Origin: an uncultured Clostridia bacterium
GTDB taxonomy: Bacteria > Bacillota_A > Clostridia > TANB77 > CAG-508
Assembly (NCBI GenBank): GCA_947625985.1
Contig: CANQQF010000011.1
Span: 1-48,413 of the forward strand
Direction: 5' to 3'
Length of the DNA stretch: 48,413 nucleotides
Of this stretch, positions 19,348-48,277 are shown piece after piece; positions within the stretch are counted from its first letter, which is position 1; each line of letters begins with the position of its first letter. The notes beneath the pieces were generated by a model, which saw nothing but the letters and a program-made list of their open reading frames with translations, was not told the DNA's origin and did not search any database. Position numbers and translations under genes: made by a program.

Positions 19348-20274
19348 TTATATTCCTGTTGCTATAATTGTTGTTTTTACTCTATTACCAAAAGCTGGAA
19401 CTATAGTTGTTCCAAATATAATATTTGCATCTGTATCGATTCTATCATTAATTAACTGTAAGCTATCATTTATTTCTTTTAAACCTAAGTTTCTACCTCC
19501 AACTATTGTTACGATTACACCTTTTGCATTGTCTATTGTTATTTCAGTTAATTTATTTTCAATTGCACGTTTTACTGAATCCATTATTGCTAAAGGCCCG
19601 GTTGCTATACCTATTCCCATATACGCTCCGCCTTTATATTGCATTATAGTTTTAACATCTGCATAATCAATATTTATATCTCCAACTGTTGTGATTAAAT
19701 CTGTAATACTTCTTATTCCTGTTTTTAAAACATTGTCTACCAATTTAAACCCATCTTTTACAGTTGTTTTATTTCCTGTAATTTTTAAAAGGTTGTCATT
19801 TGGAATTATAATCAGAGCATCTACAACTTTTCTTAGTTCCTCTATTCCCTGTTCGGCTCTTAACATCCTTTTTTTTCCTTCAAAAACAAATGGTTTTGTA
19901 ACTATTCCTATTGTTAATATTCCTAAATCTTTTGCTATTCTTGCAACTATTGGCGCTGCTCCTGTTCCAGTTCCTCCACCCATTCCGGCTGTTATAAATA
20001 TCATATCTGAGTTATGTAATGCTTGCTTTATTTCATCTTTACTTTCTATTGCTGACCTTTCTCCTTTTGCAACATCTGTTCCTGTTCCTAATCCATTAGT
20101 AATATCTTTTCCAATTTGAACTGTTATTTTAGCTTTTGATGTTTTTAGGTTCTGTGCGTCTGTGTTTATTTGAACATATCTCACATTTTTTACTTTTTCT
20201 TCAATCATTCTATTAACTATGTGATTTCCAGCATCGCCTACTCCGACTATTTTAATTATTGCCTGCTCTTCCAT
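19348..20274 (-). CDS. FtsZ-like tubulin GTPase without C-terminal tail
   Basis: Tubulin/FtsZ-family GTPase. The nucleotide-binding signature GGGTGTG is intact at 99-105, the N-terminal phosphate loop reads GVGDAGNHIVNRM (usual form GVGGGGNNAVNRM), and the catalytic T7 loop NIDYADVKTIM is at 201-211. So polymerisation-coupled GTP hydrolysis is likely. The protein ends at residue 308, right after the C-terminal globular subdomain (TTIIATGI). It has no linker or conserved C-terminal peptide, which in FtsZ binds FtsA, SepF and ZapA. Normal FtsZ is 350-410 aa. It is not next to any division gene, so it may be a second, specialised FtsZ. It has AGGAGG before the ATG. Confidence 0.85.
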   Translation of the reverse strand: MEEQAIIKIVGVGDAGNHIVNRMIEEKVKNVRYVQINTDAQNLKTSKAKITVQIGKDITNGLGTGTDVAKGERSAIESKDEIKQALHNSDMIFITAGMGGGTGTGAAPIVARIAKDLGILTIGIVTKPFVFEGKKRMLRAEQGIEELRKVVDALIIIPNDNLLKITGNKTTVKDGFKLVDNVLKTGIRSITDLITTVGDINIDYADVKTIMQYKGGAYMGIGIATGPLAIMDSVKRAIENKLTEITIDNAKGVIVTIVGGRNLGLKEINDSLQLINDRIDTDANIIFGTTIVPAFGNRVKTTIIATGI

Positions 20275-20719: not shown

Positions 20720-21508
20720 TTACCTTTTATTAATTTTTATGCTGTCGATTATTTTTCTTACGTCTTCTCTTCTAAATAATTCTTCACCGCTATCTCCAGT
20801 AAATCTTATAATCGGTTGTACTTCAATATTTACAGTTTGTGATAAATCATATGGAAGGATTATTTGATATTTATCTTCATTCGAATTATAGAAGCCAAAT
20901 CCTGTTATACCATTAATTGTTATATCTTCTGATGAAATTCCTGCAGTTTTTACCTCTTTATACTCTTCAAAATCTCCTTTATAATTATTTTTTAATGTTT
21001 CAGTATCAATTATTACATTAATTATAAAATCTTCACCTTCTTTAGATATTTCAGATGTTTGTAATTTTGCTGAATCTATAACTTTATACTCATATCCTTG
21101 ATCTTTAGGATAATAGACTGAAATATCAATACCGTTTCCTTTAATTCTTTCTTTTTTATCTCCTGTTTTTTCTTCTGTAAATATTGTTGCAACTGCTATA
21201 ACTAATATTATAATTACTCCTATTGCTACTATCATTTCAATTTGCTTTTTATCTATTTTTTTCTTTTCAACTTTCTTTTTTCCATTTCCGACTTCTTTTT
21301 TCCCTTTTTCAACTTCCTTTTTTTCTTTTCCAGCTTCTTTTTTTCTATTTTCAACTTCCTTTTTTTCTTTTCCAGCTTCTTTTTTTCTATCTCCGACTTC
21401 TTTTTTTCCCTTTACAACTTCTTTTTTTTCTTTTACAACTTCTTTTTTTCCCTTTTCAACTTTCTTTTTTTCTTTTCCGGCTTCTTTTTTTGCCTTCTCT
21501 TCACTCAT
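20720..21508 (-). CDS. membrane protein with Lys/Glu heptad-like repeats
   Basis: Not recognised. Residues 1-90 are a very basic run of seven-residue units (KKEVEKG, KKEAGKE and similar) likely to form a single long cytosolic helix. A membrane helix follows at about 92-112, then an extracytoplasmic domain of about 145 residues (120-262) rich in beta-strand patterns, which may be a PsbP-like or similar fold but I cannot place it. The ATG follows GGGAGG. The repeat region is also a DNA repeat (see 21233-21505). It stands alone between the Spo0E-like gene and copA. It might tether nucleic acid or acidic polymers to the membrane; that is a guess from charge only. Confidence 0.75.
   Translation of the reverse strand: MSEEKAKKEAGKEKKKVEKGKKEVVKEKKEVVKGKKEVGDRKKEAGKEKKEVENRKKEAGKEKKEVEKGKKEVGNGKKKVEKKKIDKKQIEMIVAIGVIIILVIAVATIFTEEKTGDKKERIKGNGIDISVYYPKDQGYEYKVIDSAKLQTSEISKEGEDFIINVIIDTETLKNNYKGDFEEYKEVKTAGISSEDITINGITGFGFYNSNEDKYQIILPYDLSQTVNIEVQPIIRFTGDSGEELFRREDVRKIIDSIKINKR
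21233..21505 (-). repeat. in-frame minisatellite coding Lys-rich repeats
   Basis: Tandem units of 21 and 42 bp, with two nearly identical 36-37 bp copies within 21315-21390, all in frame. They code for seven-residue KKExxxx blocks. Copy number is likely variable between strains. Confidence 0.7.
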
Positions 21509-39553: not shown

Positions 39554-40498
39554 TTATTTATTGCCTCCTTTATCAATTAATTTTATAAATGCTTCTTCTA
39601 ATGTTGCATCAACTTTCTTCATTTCAAATATTGTTATTCCCTCTTTAGCTAGTATTTCGAAGATTTCCTTTCTGACATCAACATTCTTTTTGCATTTTAT
39701 TACATATTCTTTTGTTTTGTCTTCATTTTCTTTTACTAATTCTATTTCTTTGATTCCTTCAATTTTAGACTTAATTTCTTTCATTTTGTTTTCTTTATCT
39801 TCAACAATAATATTTATTGTATTTTCTTTTGACACTTTTTCTTCTAGATTTTTAGGAGTGTCAATTGCTACTATTTTTCCTTTATTTATAATTATTACTC
39901 TTTCGCATAATTGACTAACCTCTGATAGAATATGTGAACTTATTACTACTGTATGGTTTTTAGCAAGACCTTTTATCACTTCTCTTATTTCTGTAACTTG
40001 TTTTGGATCTAATCCTACTGTAGGTTCATCTAATATTAGTATTTTAGGATCTCCTACTAAAGCACCTGCCATACTTACTCTTTGTTTATATCCTCTTGAG
40101 AGGTTACGGATAAGCTTTTTTTGAACTTCTTCTAGTCCTGTTTCTTCTAAGACTTCTTGTACTCTCTCTTTTTTTTCTCTCTTATTAACTCTTTTTAATT
40201 CTGCCATATATGTTACAAATTCTTTTACTGTCAATTCTGTGCATAAAGGTACTCCTTCAGGCATATATCCTATTTCTCTCTTTGCCTTTTTTGGCTTTTT
40301 TAACATATCATAACTAGCAACAAAAACATCTCCACTTGTTTGCTCAATATAACCTGTTATGATATTCATAGTTGTACTCTTTCCTGCACCATTTGGACCT
40401 AGTAATCCTATGATTTCACCTTCGTTAATTTTAAAGCTTACATCATCAAGTGCTACAAAGTTTCCATATTTTTTCGTAACGTTTTTTAACTCAATCAC
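39554..40498 (-). CDS. GldA-like ABC transporter ATPase
   Basis: ATPase of the same ABC-2 export system. Walker A is GPNGAGKST (34-42), the signature LSRGYKQR at about 137, Walker B ILILDEPTVGLDP and the switch His in VISSHILSEV. The C-terminal 90 residues form an added domain seen in related exporters. It starts at a GTG with AGGAGG upstream. Length is 314 aa. Confidence 0.93.
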   Translation of the reverse strand: MIELKNVTKKYGNFVALDDVSFKINEGEIIGLLGPNGAGKSTTMNIITGYIEQTSGDVFVASYDMLKKPKKAKREIGYMPEGVPLCTELTVKEFVTYMAELKRVNKREKKERVQEVLEETGLEEVQKKLIRNLSRGYKQRVSMAGALVGDPKILILDEPTVGLDPKQVTEIREVIKGLAKNHTVVISSHILSEVSQLCERVIIINKGKIVAIDTPKNLEEKVSKENTINIIVEDKENKMKEIKSKIEGIKEIELVKENEDKTKEYVIKCKKNVDVRKEIFEILAKEGITIFEMKKVDATLEEAFIKLIDKGGNK

Positions 40499-40537
40499 GA
40501 GATATTCCTCCTTCTTTTTTATCTTTTCATAGCTTTA

Positions 40538-40566
40538 ATATTATCATTTTATATTTTTATTGTAAA
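40538..40566 (-). promoter_or_regulatory. ABC operon promoter
   Basis: Minus-strand TTTACA (40561-40566), 17-base spacer, TAATAT (40538-40543). Confidence 0.6.
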
Positions 40567-40664
40567 GCTTTTCACAAAAAATTCACAATAACTATTTCCG
40601 TAAGGAATTGTTTGTTTTATTTTTACATGTTACAATGAAAATTTGTGTAGTTTTACATAATCTC

Positions 40665-40693
40665 TTGACTTTTTTATTTTCCTGTGATAAAAT
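40665..40693 (+). promoter_or_regulatory. promoter of the nicotinamidase-vWA-PP2C-kinase cassette
   Basis: TTGACT (40665-40670), 17-base spacer, TAAAAT (40688-40693). The 85-nt leader contains a hairpin (CTTTTCTTTT at 40722 with AAAAGAAAAG near 40745-40754). Confidence 0.7.
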
Positions 40694-40785
40694 TATGTTG
40701 CATTTAATTATATGGTTTATTCTTTTCTTTTATAAATTAATATAAAAAGAAAAGACGTATTCAACTTAATATTTAGGAGTAACAC

Positions 40786-41694
40786 ATGAAAACCAATTAC
40801 GAACAGATTGTAGACATTGCAAAAATAGCAAAACACGGACAGTTAGATTTAAACCCAATTTTTACAATGGCTGAATCAGAAAGCTTAACCCCATCAATTA
40901 ATGATTCTTGTAGTCGGTTACTTTTATGTATCGACATGCAAAAAGACTTTATTGAAGGAGGCGCTTTAGCAGTTCCAGGATCTATTGGTGATGTAGAAAG
41001 AACAACACGTTTTATCTATAACAATATGGAAGGTATTTCTAGAATAATGTGTAGTTTAGATACACACATTGCTCATCAAATTTTCCATCCTTGTTGGTGG
41101 TCTGATCCAAATGGTAATCATCCAGATCCATATACAATCATCACTTATGATGATGTAAAAAACAATGTATGGCGTCCAGTTATTGGAAATCCCCAAGATT
41201 CTATCGAATATTTAAAAGGGTTAGAAAAAGCTGGTCAGAAGATGCTTTGCATTTGGCCTTATCATTGTATTAGTGGTACTGAAGGTTTCACTTTAGAAAA
41301 CGAATTTGCTAAAATGGTATACTTCCATTCCGTAGCACGTAAAAGTGTAAACCACATGATTCAAAAAGGAACAGATCCTTATAGTGAAATGTACGGTATT
41401 ATTAAACCCGAATACAGCAAAAAGAACTTTTTAAATACGCCTGTTCTTACAGCTATTGAAAAGTATAATGAAATTTTTGTTGTTGGTGAAGCTGCAAGTC
41501 ATTGCTTAATGGAATCAGTTAGACAAATTGCTGAACATTTCGCTAATCGTCCAGAAATTACTCAGAAGATTACAATTCTTGAAGATTGTACTTCTCCAAT
41601 TACTGGATATGAAGATGAAACGCAAGCAACATTTGCAGACTTTAAAAATTCTTACGGAATTAAGTTTGCTAAGTCAACAGACATCCAACTTTAA
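40786..41694 (+). CDS. nicotinamidase-like isochorismatase-fold hydrolase
   Basis: Cysteine hydrolase predicted to cut nicotinamide to nicotinate and ammonia, a step in NAD+ salvage. The catalytic triad is visible: D50 in CIDMQKDF, K194 in IQKGTDP and C240 in VVGEAASHCLMES. Metal ligands fit D92 and H94 (SLDTH) and H160 in WPYHC, the nicotinamidase mark. At 302 aa it is longer than PncA (about 210): there are about 40 extra N-terminal residues, with a helical stretch resembling the start of the next gene's product, and several loop insertions. It starts after AGGAGT, is first in the cassette and uses CGT Arg codons more than the neighbours. Ser in place of a Tyr before the Cys is a change from canonical PncA. 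Confidence 0.85.
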   Translation: MKTNYEQIVDIAKIAKHGQLDLNPIFTMAESESLTPSINDSCSRLLLCIDMQKDFIEGGALAVPGSIGDVERTTRFIYNNMEGISRIMCSLDTHIAHQIFHPCWWSDPNGNHPDPYTIITYDDVKNNVWRPVIGNPQDSIEYLKGLEKAGQKMLCIWPYHCISGTEGFTLENEFAKMVYFHSVARKSVNHMIQKGTDPYSEMYGIIKPEYSKKNFLNTPVLTAIEKYNEIFVVGEAASHCLMESVRQIAEHFANRPEITQKITILEDCTSPITGYEDETQATFADFKNSYGIKFAKSTDIQL

Positions 41695-41700
41695 TCGCTT

Positions 41701-42510
41701 ATGGATAACATTACAGTTAATAGTTTGGAAGAATATCTGAATATTTGTAATATTGCTGAAAAACAAGGATTAGAAGCACTAAATGCTTATTCAAAAAGGA
41801 GTAACGACAAGATGAATTATTTAGAAAACATTGAGTTTGAAGTAGCTGGTTTAGATGAAAGTCATGCTGACAATTTAGATGTTGATGATGTTCTCGCTTC
41901 AAGTATCACTTTAGTAGATTTTGTAATTGATAGCACTGGCTCCATGTGGGATTATGAAGATGCAATGAATGATTGTCTTGAACATTACAAACAAGCAATT
42001 GTAAATTCAAAACAAGCTGATGAAATGCTTGTTAGCAAGACATTATTTAATGATGAAATTAAAACAGGTGGTTATGTAGCACCTGAAGATTTCGATACAT
42101 CTTATAGTGCCTACGGTGTAACCAGACTCTATGATGCAATAATTGACAGACGTCAACGTATGTTAGACTATATGGAACAACTGCGTGATAATGGTACAAA
42201 TGTTAGAGCATGTATGGTAATTCTATCAGATGGTTTTGACAACGCATCTAACTTTAGAATAGGAGATGCCAGAAATGCAGTTCAAGACTTAATTTCTAAA
42301 GAAATTACAGTCGCTTTTGTAGCATTTGGTCAAGATGCATTTGGTATAGCACAGTCTTTAGGTATTAAAGACAAAAATGTTAAAGAAGTAAACAATAATG
42401 AAAGCGAACTTCGCAAAATTATTGATTTAGTTTCTAAAAGTGCTATTAGCGCTTCAAAAAACGCTAATACTGGTCTAACGACAGAAGACGGTGGATTTTT
42501 TGATGTATAA
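41701..42510 (+). CDS. vWA-domain (TerY-like) protein
   Basis: von Willebrand A fold with a metal-ion-dependent adhesion site: D77-S-T-G-S81 (DxSxS variant), T141 in GVTRLYDAI, and D177 in ILSDGFDN. This is the TerY-like form found next to phosphatase and kinase genes. Two starts are possible. The ATG at 41701 (six bases after the upstream stop) has no clear ribosome binding site but gives an N-terminal helix resembling that of the nicotinamidase. The ATG at 41812 has AAAGGAG ten bases upstream and gives 232 aa with the complete vWA domain. Residues 1-37 would be lost in the second case. Its partners are the PP2C and kinase encoded downstream. Confidence 0.88.
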   Translation: MDNITVNSLEEYLNICNIAEKQGLEALNAYSKRSNDKMNYLENIEFEVAGLDESHADNLDVDDVLASSITLVDFVIDSTGSMWDYEDAMNDCLEHYKQAIVNSKQADEMLVSKTLFNDEIKTGGYVAPEDFDTSYSAYGVTRLYDAIIDRRQRMLDYMEQLRDNGTNVRACMVILSDGFDNASNFRIGDARNAVQDLISKEITVAFVAFGQDAFGIAQSLGIKDKNVKEVNNNESELRKIIDLVSKSAISASKNANTGLTTEDGGFFDV

Positions 42511-42560
42511 GCCGTAAGGCAATATACATCGTCGGATATGGTTATTTATTAAAGTTGATC

Positions 42561-42585
42561 AGAGGGGTTGTTTTACAATCCCTCT
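42561..42585 (+). terminator. intercistronic hairpin between vWA and PP2C genes
   Basis: Eleven-base-pair stem AGAGGGGTTGT / ACAATCCCTCT with a three-base loop and one G-U pair. No T-run follows, so it may act as a partial terminator or an RNA-stability element. Confidence 0.5.
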
Positions 42586-42630
42586 GTATTATTATAAAAA
42601 ATTAAAACTCTATTTTCAACGAGGAACAAC

Positions 42631-43413
42631 ATGAATGATTTTTTAAAAATATTACAAGACTTATTTGAACAAAAAGAGATTTTACTATTACCAGAACCGA
42701 AAAAGCAATCAAAGAGAATTCCTATATGCGTTTGTAAGATGGGTTCAGACCATAATTTTGCAAATATAAACAACCAAGATTATGCATTCAATTTATTAAA
42801 TATGAAAATTGTAATGGATGGTTGTGGGTCAGGAAAACATTCTGAAATTGGTACAAAAGTTTTTGCACAATTATTCGCAAGAAAAGCAAAAGAGTTCTTT
42901 GAAAAAGGTGAATATATTTCTGAAGACAATATTGTAGAAGTCGTTGACTCTATATTTGAAAAAATGCTTCAATTATGCAATGATACTCAGTTCATTTTTC
43001 AGAATTATTGTTTTACAATTTTAATATGTTTTGAATTAGAAGATGAATTTGTTGTATACAGTTGCGGTGATGGATATCTTATTAAAGAAGATAAAAGTGG
43101 TATTTCATTTGATAAACTTGATGATGGAGAATACCCTTGCTATTACATATATAATTTTATTGAAGATAAAAGCATTTTATATGAATATAAAGATGGTGTT
43201 ACTTTTAAGGTTACACGTTTTAATAAAAAAGACTTCTTTAATGTTGGAGTAGCAAGTGATGGTTTAAGGTTTTATGAAAATCTTTTAGATATTGAAAAAA
43301 ATAAATTCTTTAAATTTTTAAGTAATGGTAGTGGTTCTCAAATTGAGAAATTAATAAATAGAAATAATCGTAAAAACGAAATGTTTCATGATGACATTTC
43401 AATTTGTTTCTAA
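42631..43413 (+). CDS. PP2C-type Ser/Thr protein phosphatase
   Basis: Metal-dependent phosphatase fold of 260 residues. Motifs: MDGCGSGKHSEIGT (63-75, with D63-G64 metal ligand as in DGxGG), SCGDGYL (GDS-type turn near 150), VASDGL (the SDG metal Asp near 208) and HDDIS at the end (D254-D255, the last metal site). It would dephosphorylate targets of the next gene's kinase. The ATG follows GAGGAA. It is encoded 120 bases downstream of the vWA gene, after the hairpin, and its stop is 16 bases before the kinase start. Confidence 0.87.
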   Translation: MNDFLKILQDLFEQKEILLLPEPKKQSKRIPICVCKMGSDHNFANINNQDYAFNLLNMKIVMDGCGSGKHSEIGTKVFAQLFARKAKEFFEKGEYISEDNIVEVVDSIFEKMLQLCNDTQFIFQNYCFTILICFELEDEFVVYSCGDGYLIKEDKSGISFDKLDDGEYPCYYIYNFIEDKSILYEYKDGVTFKVTRFNKKDFFNVGVASDGLRFYENLLDIEKNKFFKFLSNGSGSQIEKLINRNNRKNEMFHDDISICF

Positions 43414-43429
43414 AAAGGAGAAATTTAAT

Positions 43430-45190
43430 ATGGCTATTAATTTTCCAAGCCGAAGTAAAATTGAATCTTTAAATAAGCTAGCTGAAGGAGGAGAAGCTAC
43501 CATTTATGAATATGGTAAAGATGTTCTTAAAATTTTTAAGCCTTCTGTAAACTTAGCATATAAAGAAAAAAAAGTAAAGTTTTTTATTTCTATAAAGAAA
43601 CGATTACCAAACAATGTTATTGGACCAAAAGAAACAGTTGAAGTTAATGGTAACTTTGTTGGATATTCAATGAAACGGTTGAATAAATCTGAAGATTTAC
43701 ATATGTTAACAAAACCCAAATTTTTAGCTACATCTAACTTGTCAAATAAAGATGTTCTAAATGTCGTTACACAAATAGGTAAAAACCTAAATGAGTTACA
43801 CCGTAATGGAATCCTCGTAGGAGATATAAGCGATTATAATTTTCAAATAAAAGGTACTGATAGTTTTTTCATCGATGTTGATAGTTGGGGAATTTCTGGT
43901 AAATATGATCCAGATGCTTATACTGAACTTTTTACTTGCCCAGATAGCTATAATTTTGATGGAAGTATATCATTTTCCCAAAAATGTGAAAATTATAATT
44001 TCGCAGTTCTAGCTTTTAATATGCTAACCAAAATACATCCTTTTGGAGGAACATATCTACCTAATAAAAACCTTTCTATATTAGATAGAATGAAAAAGAA
44101 GATCTCTGTAGTAGGAAATTATAGAAATGATATTAAACTTCCAAAAATAATTGGCAGTTGGAAATGGATGTCGCCTGTTTTAGAGGAACAATTTCGTAAA
44201 ATTTTCGAACAAGATTTAAGAGAAGATATTACACCTCTTCTTGAAGATCTTCTTCAAAATATGAAATATTGCCAAACTCATAATATTTATTATTATTCTA
44301 AATATAATGAGTGTCCTCTTTGTAATGAAGATGCTAAAGTTAGAGTAGAACCTATTGTAACGCAAGTTACTAAAACATCTCATGGACCGCAAATTACCAT
44401 TGTATTTGCTGGTACTGATTGTTCTTATATTTTAGGTTCAACGAATTACCTCAATACGCACAATGAAGTAGTTCATTTTGGTTCTAATAGAACTTTTAAT
44501 TTTGTTAGAGGACAAAAAGTTGATTTTTCCAATGATGGAAAAATTGTATTTATATCTGATGAAGATACAATAAAAATTTACAATGAACAAAACCAACTTA
44601 CTGCAACTATTGATCGTATGAATAACTCTAATTATCTAGTTAAAGATAGAGATTTATATTACGTAGATAAAGGTGAAGACTTGGTAAAATTATCAATTAC
44701 TCAATATGGAAATTTACCTCACTATTTAGGTCAGGTTTATGCTCCTATTTTTGAAGTATCTGATGATGGAAAAGTGTTTATTGTTTCAATGTATCCAAAA
44801 AAAGCGATAATAAATACTCCAGATTATACTTTTGAGTTAGATTATTTGAATAAAATAAAAGAATATGCAATAAAGTATGATAAGGCAACTAACAAATGGC
44901 TATTTGTTTATCAATTAGCTAATGGAAAATATCGTACTGTATTATTTGGAAAGAATCATATTGAATATGATGATGATATAATTATGTACAATGCTCAAAC
45001 TTTGAGTAATATCGACTTTTTCAATAATACTATATATGATCCCTCTGATGGAAAGATTGTTGGAACAAATATTGTGAAAAATGTAGCAAAAGAATTTTCT
45101 TGTGATGTTGTTGATGAAAATTCTAAACTTGAATTTACAGGTAAAGGATTTAAGATTTACACAGATAAGAAAATATACTCCTATGGTTAA
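43430..45190 (+). CDS. protein kinase with zinc knuckle and propeller-like tail
   Basis: Eukaryotic-like kinase, 586 aa. Gly loop LAEGGEATIYEYG (17-29), K34 in VLKIFK, catalytic GDISDYN (D132 and N137; the usual HRD is GD and the Lys is Ser), and IDVDS with D149/D151 in the DFG place. The TerY-P kinases show the same ID-x-DS form. A zinc knuckle C281-x2-H284-x10-C295-x2-C298 joins the kinase to about 270 residues of beta repeats (for example VSDDGKVFIVSMYPKK) that look like a propeller. The start at 43430 is chosen by AAAAGGAG; 14 upstream codons overlap the PP2C gene. It is last in the cassette. Confidence 0.87.
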   Translation: MAINFPSRSKIESLNKLAEGGEATIYEYGKDVLKIFKPSVNLAYKEKKVKFFISIKKRLPNNVIGPKETVEVNGNFVGYSMKRLNKSEDLHMLTKPKFLATSNLSNKDVLNVVTQIGKNLNELHRNGILVGDISDYNFQIKGTDSFFIDVDSWGISGKYDPDAYTELFTCPDSYNFDGSISFSQKCENYNFAVLAFNMLTKIHPFGGTYLPNKNLSILDRMKKKISVVGNYRNDIKLPKIIGSWKWMSPVLEEQFRKIFEQDLREDITPLLEDLLQNMKYCQTHNIYYYSKYNECPLCNEDAKVRVEPIVTQVTKTSHGPQITIVFAGTDCSYILGSTNYLNTHNEVVHFGSNRTFNFVRGQKVDFSNDGKIVFISDEDTIKIYNEQNQLTATIDRMNNSNYLVKDRDLYYVDKGEDLVKLSITQYGNLPHYLGQVYAPIFEVSDDGKVFIVSMYPKKAIINTPDYTFELDYLNKIKEYAIKYDKATNKWLFVYQLANGKYRTVLFGKNHIEYDDDIIMYNAQTLSNIDFFNNTIYDPSDGKIVGTNIVKNVAKEFSCDVVDENSKLEFTGKGFKIYTDKKIYSYG

Positions 45191-45228
45191 TTTGAAGTTA
45201 AACTAGTTGTAACTGGTTTTATTGTTTT

Positions 45229-45267
45229 AAAAGCCTACTGATAATTAATTATCAGTAGGCTTTTTTT
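45229..45267. terminator. strong bidirectional terminator after the cassette
   Basis: An 18-bp stem (45229-45246 with 45247-45264) with no loop beyond the palindrome centre, followed by a T-run. It also ends the convergent protease gene. Confidence 0.9.
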
Positions 45268-45273
45268 ATAAAT

Positions 45274-46677
45274 CTATTTAATTTTTTTCTTTATTTTTAT
45301 TATACAAACTATACTAACTGTTGATGTTGCCAACATAATCAAATAATACATTATTTTATCTCCTGTATGTGGAGAATATTTTTCTTCTATTAATTCTGGA
45401 CCACCTTCATCATATTTTTTCTGAGATGGGCTATCTATCTTATCTTTTGCTGCATTTTCATAATAATTATCTAGTGTATAGCCTCCAGAAGATGACGGAT
45501 TGTTACTACCACCTGGTTTACTTGATGGCTCGCTTGACGGTTCACTATTTGGATTAGTTGATGGCTCTACTGATGGTTGAGTTGATGGTTGAGTACTAGG
45601 ATAAGTACTCGGTTCACTACTTGGTTCAGTAGATGGTAGCGGGCTTGGTGATGGTCTTGGACTTGGTGATGGACTTGGTGATGGATTTGGTGATGGACTT
45701 GGTTCTGGACTTGCTGACGGAGAAGGTGTAGGTTCTGAATTGTTAATACTATATGGTCCGTATCTATATTCTTCAGAACTACTCATATTTCCAGCATTAT
45801 CAGTAATAGGTTTTATATATAAATAATATGTTCCATTTACTTCAGGTACTCTTACTGTTGCTTGATTTGAATTTAATTTTACAGTATTAAATGTTGTATC
45901 ATCTGTTAATATATCACTTGTTGTAAAAGCATATTGTATGTTTTCATCTTTTACTCCTGTTCCTTCATCTGAAACACTAATTGTAACATCAATTCCACTT
46001 GATACTACTTCAGATGTCACTGTCAGTTTTGGCAATATTGTATCTAAAATACAATAATAATTAACATAATTTTCTAACTGTGAACCTTTTTCTCTAACTT
46101 GTATAGTGTAATTTCCATCAGCTTCTAATTGAATAGTTGTTCCACTTAATTCTTTCCATGTTCCGTCTATATTTACTTCATATGTTTTTCCTTCTTCTAT
46201 ATTTTGAATTTCTATATTTCCATTTTTTAAATATGTAGGTTTACTTTGTTCAGTTGATATTTGTAGTGAAGGTATACTTGATAATTTTGATAAATCTAAA
46301 GTTCCTCCAGTAGCTACTAAATCTGTTAATTCGTCAGTTTTTCTAACACATTCTAGAAGTATTTCTTTTTTTTCTAATGCATTTGTTATATTTTCATATT
46401 TATTTGAAATAGTACCTACAGCAGCTGCAACAAAAGGAGCTGCAAAACTAGTTCCTGATTGAACATTATATGGAGTAGTAGCACCTTCTTTAAAAGGTTT
46501 CCCTGAAGCAAAAGCTTTTATATTATCTATATACGCAACATCTTCCGAATTAGTCTGTATTACAAAATTTTTTACTTTACTTTGATCTATAGTAATATAA
46601 CCACCAGCTGAATAAAACCATCCATCATCATCTTCATATACATCATATGTTACTGTATAATCTCCGTGGTTCTTCAA
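45274..46677 (-). CDS. C-terminal half of split subtilisin-like surface protease
   Basis: Continuation of the upstream protease in the next frame (+1). It holds the catalytic Ser in GTSFAAPFVAAAVG (S77 of this frame), a middle beta-sandwich/Ig-like region (about 130-310), a Pro-Ser-rich stalk of SPSP, EPS and TQPS repeats, then SPHTGD, a hydrophobic span and KIKKKIK. SPHTG fits the sortase motifs (SPKTG-like) of Clostridia, so the product should be anchored in the wall. The TTG at 46677 has no ribosome binding site, and the first residues run straight on from the upstream frame, so this is the rest of one gene rather than a separate one. Confidence 0.85.
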   Translation of the reverse strand: MKNHGDYTVTYDVYEDDDGWFYSAGGYITIDQSKVKNFVIQTNSEDVAYIDNIKAFASGKPFKEGATTPYNVQSGTSFAAPFVAAAVGTISNKYENITNALEKKEILLECVRKTDELTDLVATGGTLDLSKLSSIPSLQISTEQSKPTYLKNGNIEIQNIEEGKTYEVNIDGTWKELSGTTIQLEADGNYTIQVREKGSQLENYVNYYCILDTILPKLTVTSEVVSSGIDVTISVSDEGTGVKDENIQYAFTTSDILTDDTTFNTVKLNSNQATVRVPEVNGTYYLYIKPITDNAGNMSSSEEYRYGPYSINNSEPTPSPSASPEPSPSPNPSPSPSPSPRPSPSPLPSTEPSSEPSTYPSTQPSTQPSVEPSTNPNSEPSSEPSSKPGGSNNPSSSGGYTLDNYYENAAKDKIDSPSQKKYDEGGPELIEEKYSPHTGDKIMYYLIMLATSTVSIVCIIKIKKKIK

Positions 46678-48277
46678 CTTTTATAGGTACTATTACAGTA
46701 ATATTATCATCTGTATCCATACTTTTTTTTGTACATTTTAGAGATTTTCCTTCAGCACCAAAGAAATTTTCATCAGTTATTTCTAAATCAGCATTTGTAT
46801 TTATTGTTTCTCCATTTTCATCTTGAGTACTATCACAATAATCTTCACCTTTTACTAAACTTTCTTTTGAATCATATCCACAATAAAAATCTGCTATTTC
46901 TTTCATTTCTTCTTCTGTGTGCGCAAGCGAACAAACATCATTTTTTAACGATGTTGTAAATATATTTTTTCCTGGGGCTGCTAAATCTACTTTTTCTTTT
47001 CCATAATTAGAAAAACCTTTACATAACTTATCTCTTTCATTAGTTGCTGTAACAGAAACTATATAGTCACTATTTAAACCTGCAGGATAAAGGCTTTTAT
47101 TATCAATATCTTCTGCATCATTTCCAGCAGCACATATTGATAAAGTTCCATTCTCTCCTGCTTTATTAATTAATTCTAAAGTTGCTTCATCTTCTCTATC
47201 TACTTCTCCACCAAAAGATAGATTTGTTGCAACAATATTTACACCTTTCTTTTGCTGCTCTAATACATAATTATACGCTTCTATTACTGTAGACGAATAT
47301 ACAGTTCCTTCATCATCAGCAACTTTTAAATTCATTATTTTTATATTATTATTTTCTAGTAAAGCTCCTGTTACTCCCATATTATTGTTTGAACTAGCAG
47401 CTATTATGCCTGCACAAGCAGTACCATGTCCTATTTCATAATCGTCCATAGGATCTGAATCATCATTCACAAAATCATATCCTGTATTTCCTTCACTGTC
47501 TTTCCACATAACATCTTTTAAATCTTCATTATTGTAATCTATTCCTGAATCTAATACTGCTATAACTTTTTCTTTGTCACTATTTGTTGAAATTGGATTT
47601 ATGTCACTACCTTCCTGTCCTCCAAATTGTCCTGTATTTTCAATCGCCCATTGATTTTTTACCAAAGTATCATTTGTCAAACTAGTTAAATGATATTTAT
47701 AATTTGGCTGTACACAATATACTTCATCTTTTAGTTTTTCTATAATCTCTTGTGTTGATAATGTTTCAGATTTTACAAATAAAAATTTTAAATTGTTTTC
47801 ATCATTACTTTTTATTCTGTATGTTCTTTCTTCTTTGCTATTTTCTATATCTATTTCTTTATAAACTGTTATACCATCCCATACAGAATTTTTTGTAATG
47901 TTATTTTTTATAGAAGAAAAAATTGAAGTCTTTTGAGTAGGTTTTATTATTACAATTGCTTCTCCTTCAACATAATTGCTGTTTTCTTGACTATTATTGT
48001 CTGTTGCTATATTTTTTGTTTGTTTATTTTCTTCTTTTTCATTTTGTTCAGCTGTCTGACTATATTTACTTAATGCATTCGCTTTTGTTTTATTCTCTGA
48101 CTCTATAGTTGTTTTTGCAGTTTCTTGTTTATAATTATTTGTTTTTAAATTTTTTTGTTCATAATCTGCAGAACCTAAAATAGTTCTATTTTTAATATTA
48201 TTATAAATAAGTATAGAAAGTATCACAATAAACACTATACTACAAATTCCAATTATTCTTTTTTTACTCTTTTTCAT
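46643..48277 (-). CDS. N-terminal half of split subtilisin-like surface protease
   Basis: S8-family serine protease. A signal-anchor helix (about 8-26), a Lys/Gln/Asn-rich segment, an I9-like pro-region (about 105-200) and the catalytic core with D243 (VIAVLDSGID) and H284 (GHGTACAG). The catalytic Ser is not in this frame; it lies in the +1 frame that continues at 46677, and the first frame stops at 46643. Between His and Ser is an insertion of about 200 residues. The break reads as one extra base in the run GTTGAAGAAC: removing it gives VPIKV-KNHGDYTV. So the gene is either a recent pseudogene, a sequencing error or a programmed frameshift. Promoter and ribosome site are normal. Confidence 0.88.
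   Translation of the reverse strand: MKKSKKRIIGICSIVFIVILSILIYNNIKNRTILGSADYEQKNLKTNNYKQETAKTTIESENKTKANALSKYSQTAEQNEKEENKQTKNIATDNNSQENSNYVEGEAIVIIKPTQKTSIFSSIKNNITKNSVWDGITVYKEIDIENSKEERTYRIKSNDENNLKFLFVKSETLSTQEIIEKLKDEVYCVQPNYKYHLTSLTNDTLVKNQWAIENTGQFGGQEGSDINPISTNSDKEKVIAVLDSGIDYNNEDLKDVMWKDSEGNTGYDFVNDDSDPMDDYEIGHGTACAGIIAASSNNNMGVTGALLENNNIKIMNLKVADDEGTVYSSTVIEAYNYVLEQQKKGVNIVATNLSFGGEVDREDEATLELINKAGENGTLSICAAGNDAEDIDNKSLYPAGLNSDYIVSVTATNERDKLCKGFSNYGKEKVDLAAPGKNIFTTSLKNDVCSLAHTEEEMKEIADFYCGYDSKESLVKGEDYCDSTQDENGETINTNADLEITDENFFGAEGKSLKCTKKSMDTDDNITVIVPIKVEEPRRLYSNI

What the first reader, a model, noticed from the sequence alone, without database searches (positions are those of the whole stretch)
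40665..45267. Nicotinamidase-vWA-PP2C-kinase cassette, a possible NAD-linked signalling system
Four genes with one promoter and one terminator encode an enzyme of NAD+ salvage and a vWA, phosphatase and kinase triad like the TerY-P sets of bacterial stress systems. Such triads are known next to Ter or DNA-processing genes; I know of none joined to a nicotinamidase. Inference: the phospho-switch may control the enzyme, or the vWA protein may act as scaffold, in response to NAD depletion by phage or stress.
Basis: partly seen in the sequence, partly recalled or inferred. Interest (0 to 1): 0.82.

Follow-up and report, generated by a model that had tools for sequence, protein, structure and literature searches.

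The report
Nicotinamidase, kinase and phosphatase gene cassette
Four neighbouring genes, one for an enzyme that probably recycles part of the vitamin cofactor NAD and three for a protein on-off switch, turn out to be a recurring package in many viral contigs, some from very large bacterial viruses, and in scattered gut bacteria, which suggests that NAD recycling there is under switch control.

Summary
The four genes are real and in the order stated, and not peculiar to this genome. In one order of Clostridia, 16 of 287 genomes carry this long nicotinamidase (NIC); 11 of the 16 have the vWA gene beside it, and the 10 strongest of the kinase matches lie within about 3 kb of NIC. Searching viral contigs with three kinase alignments, NIC is in 93 of 98 loci. 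Of 103 deduplicated viral loci, 90 hold all four genes and 71 have just NIC-vWA-PP2C-kinase in that order; contigs reach 619 kb. The triad is homologous to E. coli yegL-pphC-yegI, i.e. TerY-P-like, without TerD in 44 of 44 large viral records. NAPRT and NAD synthase genes cluster at the cassette above chance (10 of 28 against 1.6 expected; 16 of 34 against 2.0), although such genes are common in huge phages anyway. NIC folds as a nicotinamidase. Best reading: a phage-type TerY-P switch wedded to NAD salvage, also held by Clostridia. That phosphorylation controls NIC is inference. I found no mention in print in ten searches; key papers were not held.

The parts
40665..40693 (+). promoter-like site, TTGACT-17-TAAAAT, with TG before the second hexamer
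   Evidence: 10 of 12 consensus matches; the region holds 48 such sites against 36.6 expected, so weak alone
40786..41694 (+). NIC: long nicotinamidase-like cysteine hydrolase, 302 aa; D50, D92, H94, H160, K194, C240 invariant in 32 family members
   Evidence: model pLDDT 95.6; best solved matches Pnc1p and A. baumannii nicotinamidase
41812..42510 (+). vWA protein, TerY/YegL-like, 232 aa (alternative in-frame start at 41701)
   Evidence: D40, S44, T104, D140 in 100% of 112 vWAs
42433..42456 (+). vWA C-terminal SxSxxxxS motif (Ser208, Ser210, Ser215), candidate phospho-acceptor or docking tail
   Evidence: 97, 98 and 96% conserved in 112 vWAs; role inferred
42560..42586 (+). internal terminator-like hairpin that splits NIC-vWA from PP2C-kinase
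   Evidence: z -4.5; a hairpin in the same gap in 12 of 14 gaps examined
42631..43413 (+). PP2C phosphatase, 260 aa
   Evidence: PF13672 54.3 bits; HMM of the family hits E. coli PphC
43430..45190 (+). Ser/Thr kinase-like protein, 586 aa: kinase domain (about residues 1-280), zinc-ribbon-like CxxH/CxxC at residues 281-298 (44270-44323), all-beta C-terminal domain (about 320-586)
   Evidence: start at 43430 inferred from the upstream GGAG
45233..45267 (.). terminator-like perfect hairpin and T-run after the kinase, before the converging subtilase gene

Best explanation
The cassette is a self-contained, mobile, phospho-regulated NAD-salvage module. NIC converts nicotinamide, the by-product of NAD-consuming enzymes and of NADase defences, to nicotinate, which enters the Preiss-Handler route (NAPRT, NadD, NadE). 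The vWA protein is proposed to be NIC's partner: an adaptor whose serine-rich tail is phosphorylated by the kinase and dephosphorylated by the PP2C enzyme, so that NIC is assembled, localised or activated only when NAD turnover is high, for example on attack by NADase immunity or when NAD-dependent phage enzymes run. The module has two blocks, NIC-vWA (made in larger amount) and PP2C-kinase (made in smaller amount behind an internal hairpin). It is found mainly in large viral genomes; some Clostridia, such as this one, carry it as an accessory chromosomal cassette that would feed their own NAD synthesis. Shown here: homology, recurring order, residue conservation, predicted fold of NIC, clustering with NAD genes, hairpin position. 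Inferred: NIC substrate, vWA-NIC contact, phosphorylation of the tail, expression ratio, the trigger, and the direction of transfer.
For: Linkage: from the kinase, NIC in 93 of 98 viral loci; from NIC, vWA in 32 of 40 viral loci; in Clostridia 11 of 16 NIC loci have vWA, and the 10 strongest of the kinase matches lie beside NIC. Order: 71 of 103 as NIC-vWA-PP2C-KIN, 11 of 103 as PP2C-KIN-NIC-vWA; NIC is directly followed by vWA among cassette genes in 92 pairs, 69 of them within 200 nt. NAD context: NAPRT within 5 kb in 10 of 28 records that have it (1.6 expected), NadE in 16 of 34 (2.0 expected) (2 of the 28 NAPRT are below Pfam's cut-off); in several loci they lie inside the cassette (L092, L188, L194, L199, L208); a Nudix cluster (NrtR type in the one tested) in 17, NADAR in 10, NAD-dependent ligase in 7 of 103; in Clostridia NadE matches lie 0.5 and 0.9 kb upstream of NIC in G148 and G233. 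NIC relatives without the triad sit in PRPS-NAMPT-NadE-NIC-Nudix runs in Sphingobacterium. NIC fold and residues. Tail serines. Kinase K34, D132, D149 invariant in 26. Triad homologous to yegL-pphC-yegI, same order; PphC is reported to dephosphorylate YegI (PMC13232886, passages).
Against: No experiment. NAD genes are common in huge phages taken as controls: NadE 5 of 10 and NAPRT 7 of 10 against 34 of 44 and 28 of 44, not significantly different, so only nearness counts, and related phages are not independent. Most cassette loci have no NAD gene within 8 kb (NAPRT 27, NadE 24 of 103). No fusions of cassette proteins in the viral loci. Two of 103 loci run vWA-PP2C-KIN-NIC, which parts NIC from vWA. 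The tail motif also occurs in YegL and in a vWA away from NIC, so it is not NIC-specific. 25 of the 31 best bacterial NIC loci lack the vWA. The fourth presumed metal ligand is not invariant (H101 is F in some). Only some of the gap hairpins have a clear T-run, so termination there is unsure.
Confidence: 0.5

Rival explanations
1. Mere metabolic clustering: huge phages gather NAD genes together, and NIC and the TerY-P triad sit side by side without any regulatory coupling; the triad controls something else.
For: NAD genes are common in huge phages generally; triads exist without NIC (yegL-pphC-yegI; 5 of 98 kinase loci lack NIC in the fetched stretch); NIC exists without the triad (25 of the 31 best bacterial loci).
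Against: The NIC-vWA link is tighter than that of the other NAD genes (NIC in 93 of 98 kinase loci; NAPRT in 27 and NadE in 24 of 103), mostly survives rearranged orders, and holds in the window, where no other NAD gene was recognised next to it.
Confidence: 0.2
2. A defence or superinfection-exclusion system of TerY-P type: the switch responds to foreign DNA or infection, and NIC is the effector that changes nicotinamide or NAD pools to stop a rival phage.
For: TerY-P modules are reported as stand-alone anti-phage systems when the kinase carries an OB-fold (PMC11090510, passages, citing Gao 2020); weak PD-T4-6 matches of the kinase.
Against: No PADLOC model hits NIC, vWA or PP2C; the neighbours tested point to NAD synthesis rather than NAD loss; among the 40 commonest neighbour clusters I recognised no toxin, and as nucleases only a GIY-YIG-like one, probably of homing type (7 loci), and an exonuclease-like one (3 loci), all by eye.
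Confidence: 0.15
3. NIC is not a nicotinamidase but a related amidase acting on another pyridine or nucleoside amide that serves as a signal for the triad.
For: Extra length (302 aa against 179-216 for 13 of the 14 best solved matches); sub-cut-off nicotinamidase scores; one presumed metal ligand variable.
Against: The 14 best structure matches are all nicotinamidases or pyrazinamidases; the 15th is another amidase. NAD-gene neighbourhood.
Confidence: 0.12

Closest known systems
TerY-P triad (vWA, PP2C, Ser/Thr kinase), incl. E. coli yegL-pphC-yegI
   Same: Homologous three proteins in the same order; kinase followed by a zinc-ribbon-like stretch in the window's protein
   Different: Joined to a nicotinamidase; TerD absent from 44 of 44 large viral records; large all-beta C-terminal domain on the kinase, whereas YegI's later part is of another kind (membrane and HhH-like, recalled)
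Phage NAD reconstitution pathways NARP1 (Adps, Namat) and NARP2 (Nampt-based, recalled)
   Same: Phage-borne genes that rebuild NAD; NARP1 also found in bacteria (PMC12774641, passages)
   Different: Deamidating route by nicotinamidase with NAPRT/NadE; no match to a NAMPT HMM in 104 loci; has a kinase/phosphatase triad
Jumbo-phage NAD synthesis genes
   Same: NAD genes in jumbo phages are reported (PMC7824862 and PMC13282480, passages)
   Different: The PMC7824862 passage names nicotinamide phosphoribosyltransferase and adenylyltransferases; 'PP2C' occurs 0 times in both texts
PncA-type nicotinamidases (yeast Pnc1p, A. baumannii, B. subtilis)
   Same: Fold and presumed catalytic residues
   Different: 302 aa against 179-216 for 13 of the 14 best rows (Drosophila 327); 14-19% identity in those structural alignments

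Membership tests
TerY-P triad | TerY/YegL-like vWA protein | tested here: met
   family HMM hits YegL, 28.0 bits (E-value for one small set); presumed metal-site residues invariant
TerY-P triad | PP2C phosphatase beside it | tested here: met
   PF13672 54.3 bits; hits PphC, 45.7 bits
TerY-P triad | Ser/Thr kinase with C-terminal zinc ribbon | tested here: met
   KIN-YegI 24% over 325 aa, HMM 112 bits; CxxH..CPLC at residues 281-298 of the window's kinase. Across the 15 kinases, 7 have such a stretch (window, L001, L002, L003, L083, L084, L117) and 8 do not (viral or Patescibacteria-type)
TerY-P triad | association with Ter genes (TerD etc.) | tested here: not met
   TerD PF02342 in 0 of 44 viral records; in 3 of 13 Clostridia genomes, on other contigs than the cassette. 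Not required by the definition in PMC11090510
TerY-P triad | phosphorylation-dependent, metal-sensing switch | not testable with these tools
   residues conserved only
nicotinamidase | isochorismatase-like fold closest to nicotinamidases | tested here: met
nicotinamidase | catalytic Asp/Lys/Cys and metal Asp/His/His/His (mapping recalled from PncA) | tested here: inconclusive
   D50, K194, C240, D92, H94, H160 invariant in 32; fourth metal ligand not invariant
nicotinamidase | score over the curated Pfam or NCBIfam cut-off | tested here: not met
   PF00857 21 of 27 bits; PRK11609 38 of 174 bits
nicotinamidase | hydrolysis of nicotinamide | not testable with these tools
   needs enzyme assay
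NARP1/NARP2 | NAMPT-family ligase in the locus | tested here: not met
   0 of 104 loci by an HMM built from Sphingobacterium NAMPT-like proteins; Adps not tested
PADLOC defence systems | match to a defence model | tested here: not met
   no match for NIC, vWA or PP2C; kinase only to PD-T4-6, best E 1.6e-4, over part of the kinase domain

The most novel reading that the evidence does not exclude
Huge phages possess a dedicated phospho-signalling system for NAD: a TerY-P switch that senses NAD breakdown and turns on a nicotinamidase-led, partly phage-encoded Preiss-Handler pathway, a regulated counter to NADase immunity; gut Clostridia have taken over the core cassette.
Probability: 0.3. Interest if true: 0.9.

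Novelty: new variant of a known kind. Interest (0 to 1): 0.74.

Why it matters
TerY-P triads are widespread, and what they switch is, to my knowledge, largely unknown. A version tied to a single, assayable enzyme gives a direct handle: measure nicotinamidase activity with and without the kinase and phosphatase. It would also add regulated control to the recently found contest between NADase immunity and phage NAD repair, in phages for which no cultured representative with the cassette was found here (NIC in 4 of 50,697 phage records, all from metagenomes or faecal samples).

Tried and rejected
Whole-record co-occurrence of NAD genes as evidence: rejected, because 10 control huge phages have them about as often. 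Two of the ten, LR756501 and LR756503, have the same length and the same hit positions and are probably one phage. Record pairs G299/W01 and G330/W03 look like near-copies as well, so the counts are a little inflated.

Tail motif first counted with a faulty pattern (19 of 98); recounted with the pattern S.S....S (107 of 112 tails; 13.8% of shuffled tails; 10 of 451 other blocks). Because YegL and another vWA have it too, I do not use it as a NIC-specific mark.

Protein fusions that would show NIC-vWA contact: none in the viral loci. Scan of viral contigs with the vWA alignment of the Clostridia type: no relative, a limit of that search, since phage vWAs are divergent. Rfam: nothing over threshold in 40000-46000. 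The all-beta C-terminal part of the kinase was not identified: the rows shown are nearly all kinase domains; the top Foldseek row, LRRK2, spans more columns but at TM 0.19-0.32 and rmsd 15.5, so I draw nothing from it. Matrix correlation of the four proteins in 90 loci (0.77-0.83) shows co-inheritance but would also arise from shared phage ancestry. Terminase as proof of viral nature: found in only 11 of 34 and 13 of 44 records; for the rest I rely on the IMG/VR or GenBank label.

Literature: all ten paper searches used. Not held, so not read: Anantharaman 2012, Osterman 2024 (121), Gao 2020 (122), the PphC paper (123), Li 2024 on NAD in gut jumbo phages (128; seen only as a citation). 'Not in print' is therefore limited to these searches.

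Full report
What is in the window. Four genes on the + strand at 40786-45190 encode a 302-aa nicotinamidase-like hydrolase (NIC), a vWA protein, a PP2C phosphatase and a kinase-like protein. They lie between an ABC-transporter operon (divergent) and a subtilase gene (converging), both on the - strand. Three details change. The vWA probably starts at 41812, since relatives are about 232 aa. The kinase probably starts at 43430. And a 12-pair hairpin at 42560-42586 divides the operon (z -4.5). Of the 14 vWA-PP2C gaps examined, window included, 12 hold a hairpin with z between -2.1 and -5.9; L002 has none and L129 has only 23 nt (L128 dropped, its contig ends first; L001 and L126 are near-copies, and the window's stem resembles theirs, while others differ in sequence; L005 is not from Clostridia). 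Only some have a clear T-run. The place is thus conserved, as expected of a partial terminator that lowers PP2C and kinase relative to NIC and vWA; that effect is inference.

Where else it occurs: bacteria. With an NIC alignment, 80 loci were kept from genome contigs. Of the 31 best (L001-L030, L038), 6 have the vWA: three Clostridia MAGs and three Patescibacteria-type MAG contigs. The other 25, among them Sphingobacterium, Paenibacillus, Brevibacillus and Chloroflexota, show NIC without the triad, in Sphingobacterium in runs with clusters that I read as PRPP synthetase, NAMPT, NAD synthase and Nudix proteins. In the order of G001, 16 of 287 genomes have the long NIC, and 11 of 16 have vWA next to it (one of the other five is a fragment). 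With the kinase profile, 32 of 287 genomes match at E 1e-20; the 10 strongest, 582-601 aa, lie within about 3 kb of NIC in the same genomes, while the rest are mostly proteins of other lengths. G260 is an exception: a 583-aa relative on another contig than its NIC, which has no vWA beside it.

Where else it occurs: viruses. From NIC, 40 viral loci, 32 with vWA. From three kinase alignments, 98 loci (one search kept 80 of 84), 93 with NIC in the fetched stretch; the five without are L193, L200, L211, L241, L250, of which L250 and L211 are cut short. Joining both sets (without the three distant loci L118-L120) with four named phage records gives 139 loci, 103 after removing near-copies: NIC in 100, vWA in 95, PP2C in 94, kinase in 96, all four in 90. 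Counting cassette genes only, other genes being allowed between, 71 read NIC-vWA-PP2C-kinase, 11 read PP2C-kinase-NIC-vWA, 2 read vWA-PP2C-kinase-NIC, 5 have NIC alone, and the remaining 14 are partial or have an extra copy. NIC is followed by vWA in 92 pairs, 69 of them within 200 nt, median gap 41.5 nt. Records reach 618,736 bases. Three deposited huge-phage genomes (LR756500, LR756511, LR745208) carry all four genes. No cultured phage does in the 50,697 records searched (NIC in 4 records, kinase in 3, all from metagenomes or faecal samples). Terminase was found in 11 of 34 records by phrog_2 and 13 of 44 by PF03237, so for many contigs the viral label rests on IMG/VR.

NAD context. Within 8 kb of the cassette in the 103 loci, the most frequent neighbour clusters are NAPRT (27), NAD synthase (24), a Nudix cluster with an NrtR winged helix in the representative tested (17) and NADAR (10); further Thg1 (9), NAD-dependent DNA ligase (7), RlaP (7) and a NadD-like cytidylyltransferase family (5) (Pfam on one representative each; KptA, 5, is by eye). 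In whole records NAPRT is present in 28 of 44, 26 over the cut-off, and NAD synthase in 34 of 44. This alone means little: ten control huge phages, not screened for NIC except by tblastn, have 7 and 5 (Fisher p 1.0 and 0.12). Nearness is what stands out: within 5 kb of the cassette lie 10 of 28 NAPRT (1.6 expected) and 16 of 34 NAD synthase genes (2.0 expected), and several lie between cassette genes. In Clostridia, NAD synthase matches lie just upstream of NIC in G148 and G233.

Kinship. The three family HMMs hit E. coli YegL (28.0 bits), PphC (45.7) and YegI (112.1), and BLAST aligns the kinase to YegI at 24% over 325 aa; gene order is the same. This makes the triad TerY-P-like by the definition in PMC11090510 (passages). 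TerD is absent from 44 of 44 viral records and not on the cassette's contig in the 3 of 13 Clostridia that have it. The NIC tree places the window among Clostridia with the triad; bacterial loci with and without triad are interleaved, and most phage loci form another large part of the tree; the triad label changes several times, so the direction of transfer is not settled (quick tree).

Mobility in the host lineage. The block around the ABC operon was fetched from 5 genomes (G001, G013, G008, G103, G073) of the 85 of 145 that match its GldG-like protein. It is conserved in all 5, and no cassette gene was found in these stretches, although G001 and G103 have the cassette on another contig. NIC and vWA have higher G+C (33.9, 33.5%) than the window (27.3%); PP2C and kinase do not stand out.

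Judgement. The association is real, ordered and widespread; I rate it far above chance. That it serves NAD salvage is well supported by context and fold. That the switch controls NIC, and that NADase immunity is the trigger, is inference. Jumbo-phage NAD genes are in print (PMC7824862, PMC13282480; passages); a nicotinamidase-TerY-P cassette I did not find, nor by term searches inside PMC7824862, PMC7162821, PMC13282480, PMC13037316 and PMC12619734. PMC10607447 lists a nicotinamidase in a phage table; 'kinase' occurs 0 times in that text (passages). The papers most likely to mention the cassette, Anantharaman 2012 and Li 2024, could not be opened.

Noticed in passing
window 45274-48277 (-): A subtilase-like gene lies in two overlapping frames (46643-48277 and 45274-46677, both Peptidase_S8 matches), so it looks interrupted; described only.
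   Followed up: no
window 41695-41811: In-frame 37-codon extension upstream of the likely vWA start; most relatives have gaps of 9-70 nt between NIC and vWA (L130 has 144), so this may be a small insertion or a longer N-terminus.
   Followed up: partly
L006, L008, L011, L015, L016, L019: Sphingobacterium chromosomes carry PRPS, NAMPT-like, NAD synthase, long NIC and Nudix genes mostly in one run (complete in L006, L008, L011 and L019; L015 shows no NAD synthase and L016 is cut), without the triad.
   Followed up: partly
L177 (Variovorax plasmid NZ_LR594690): NIC and vWA relatives beside macro-domain, two NUDIX, nucleoside deoxyribosyltransferase and NAD kinase genes on an 816-kb plasmid.
   Followed up: no
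L153-L167: Clostridia encode many long proteins (open frames of about 1300-1700 aa in most of these loci) with a related kinase domain, without NIC in the fetched stretch.
   Followed up: no
L103 and L107, 15626-16375: A second vWA protein without the tail motif follows the kinase in these near-identical viral loci.
   Followed up: no
L101, L102, L104, L106, L108, L109: A close group of 43-132 kb contigs carries the cassette (cut in L108) near a radical-SAM-like gene and, in five of them, a HerA/FtsK-like ATPase gene (names by eye), perhaps integrated or plasmid-like elements.
   Followed up: no
window 19348-20274 (-): Short FtsZ-like protein (308 aa, by eye), apparently without the usual C-terminal tail.
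   Followed up: no
window 20720-21508 (-): Protein with a long Lys/Glu repeat (GKEKKEV-like units) before a membrane segment (by eye).
   Followed up: no
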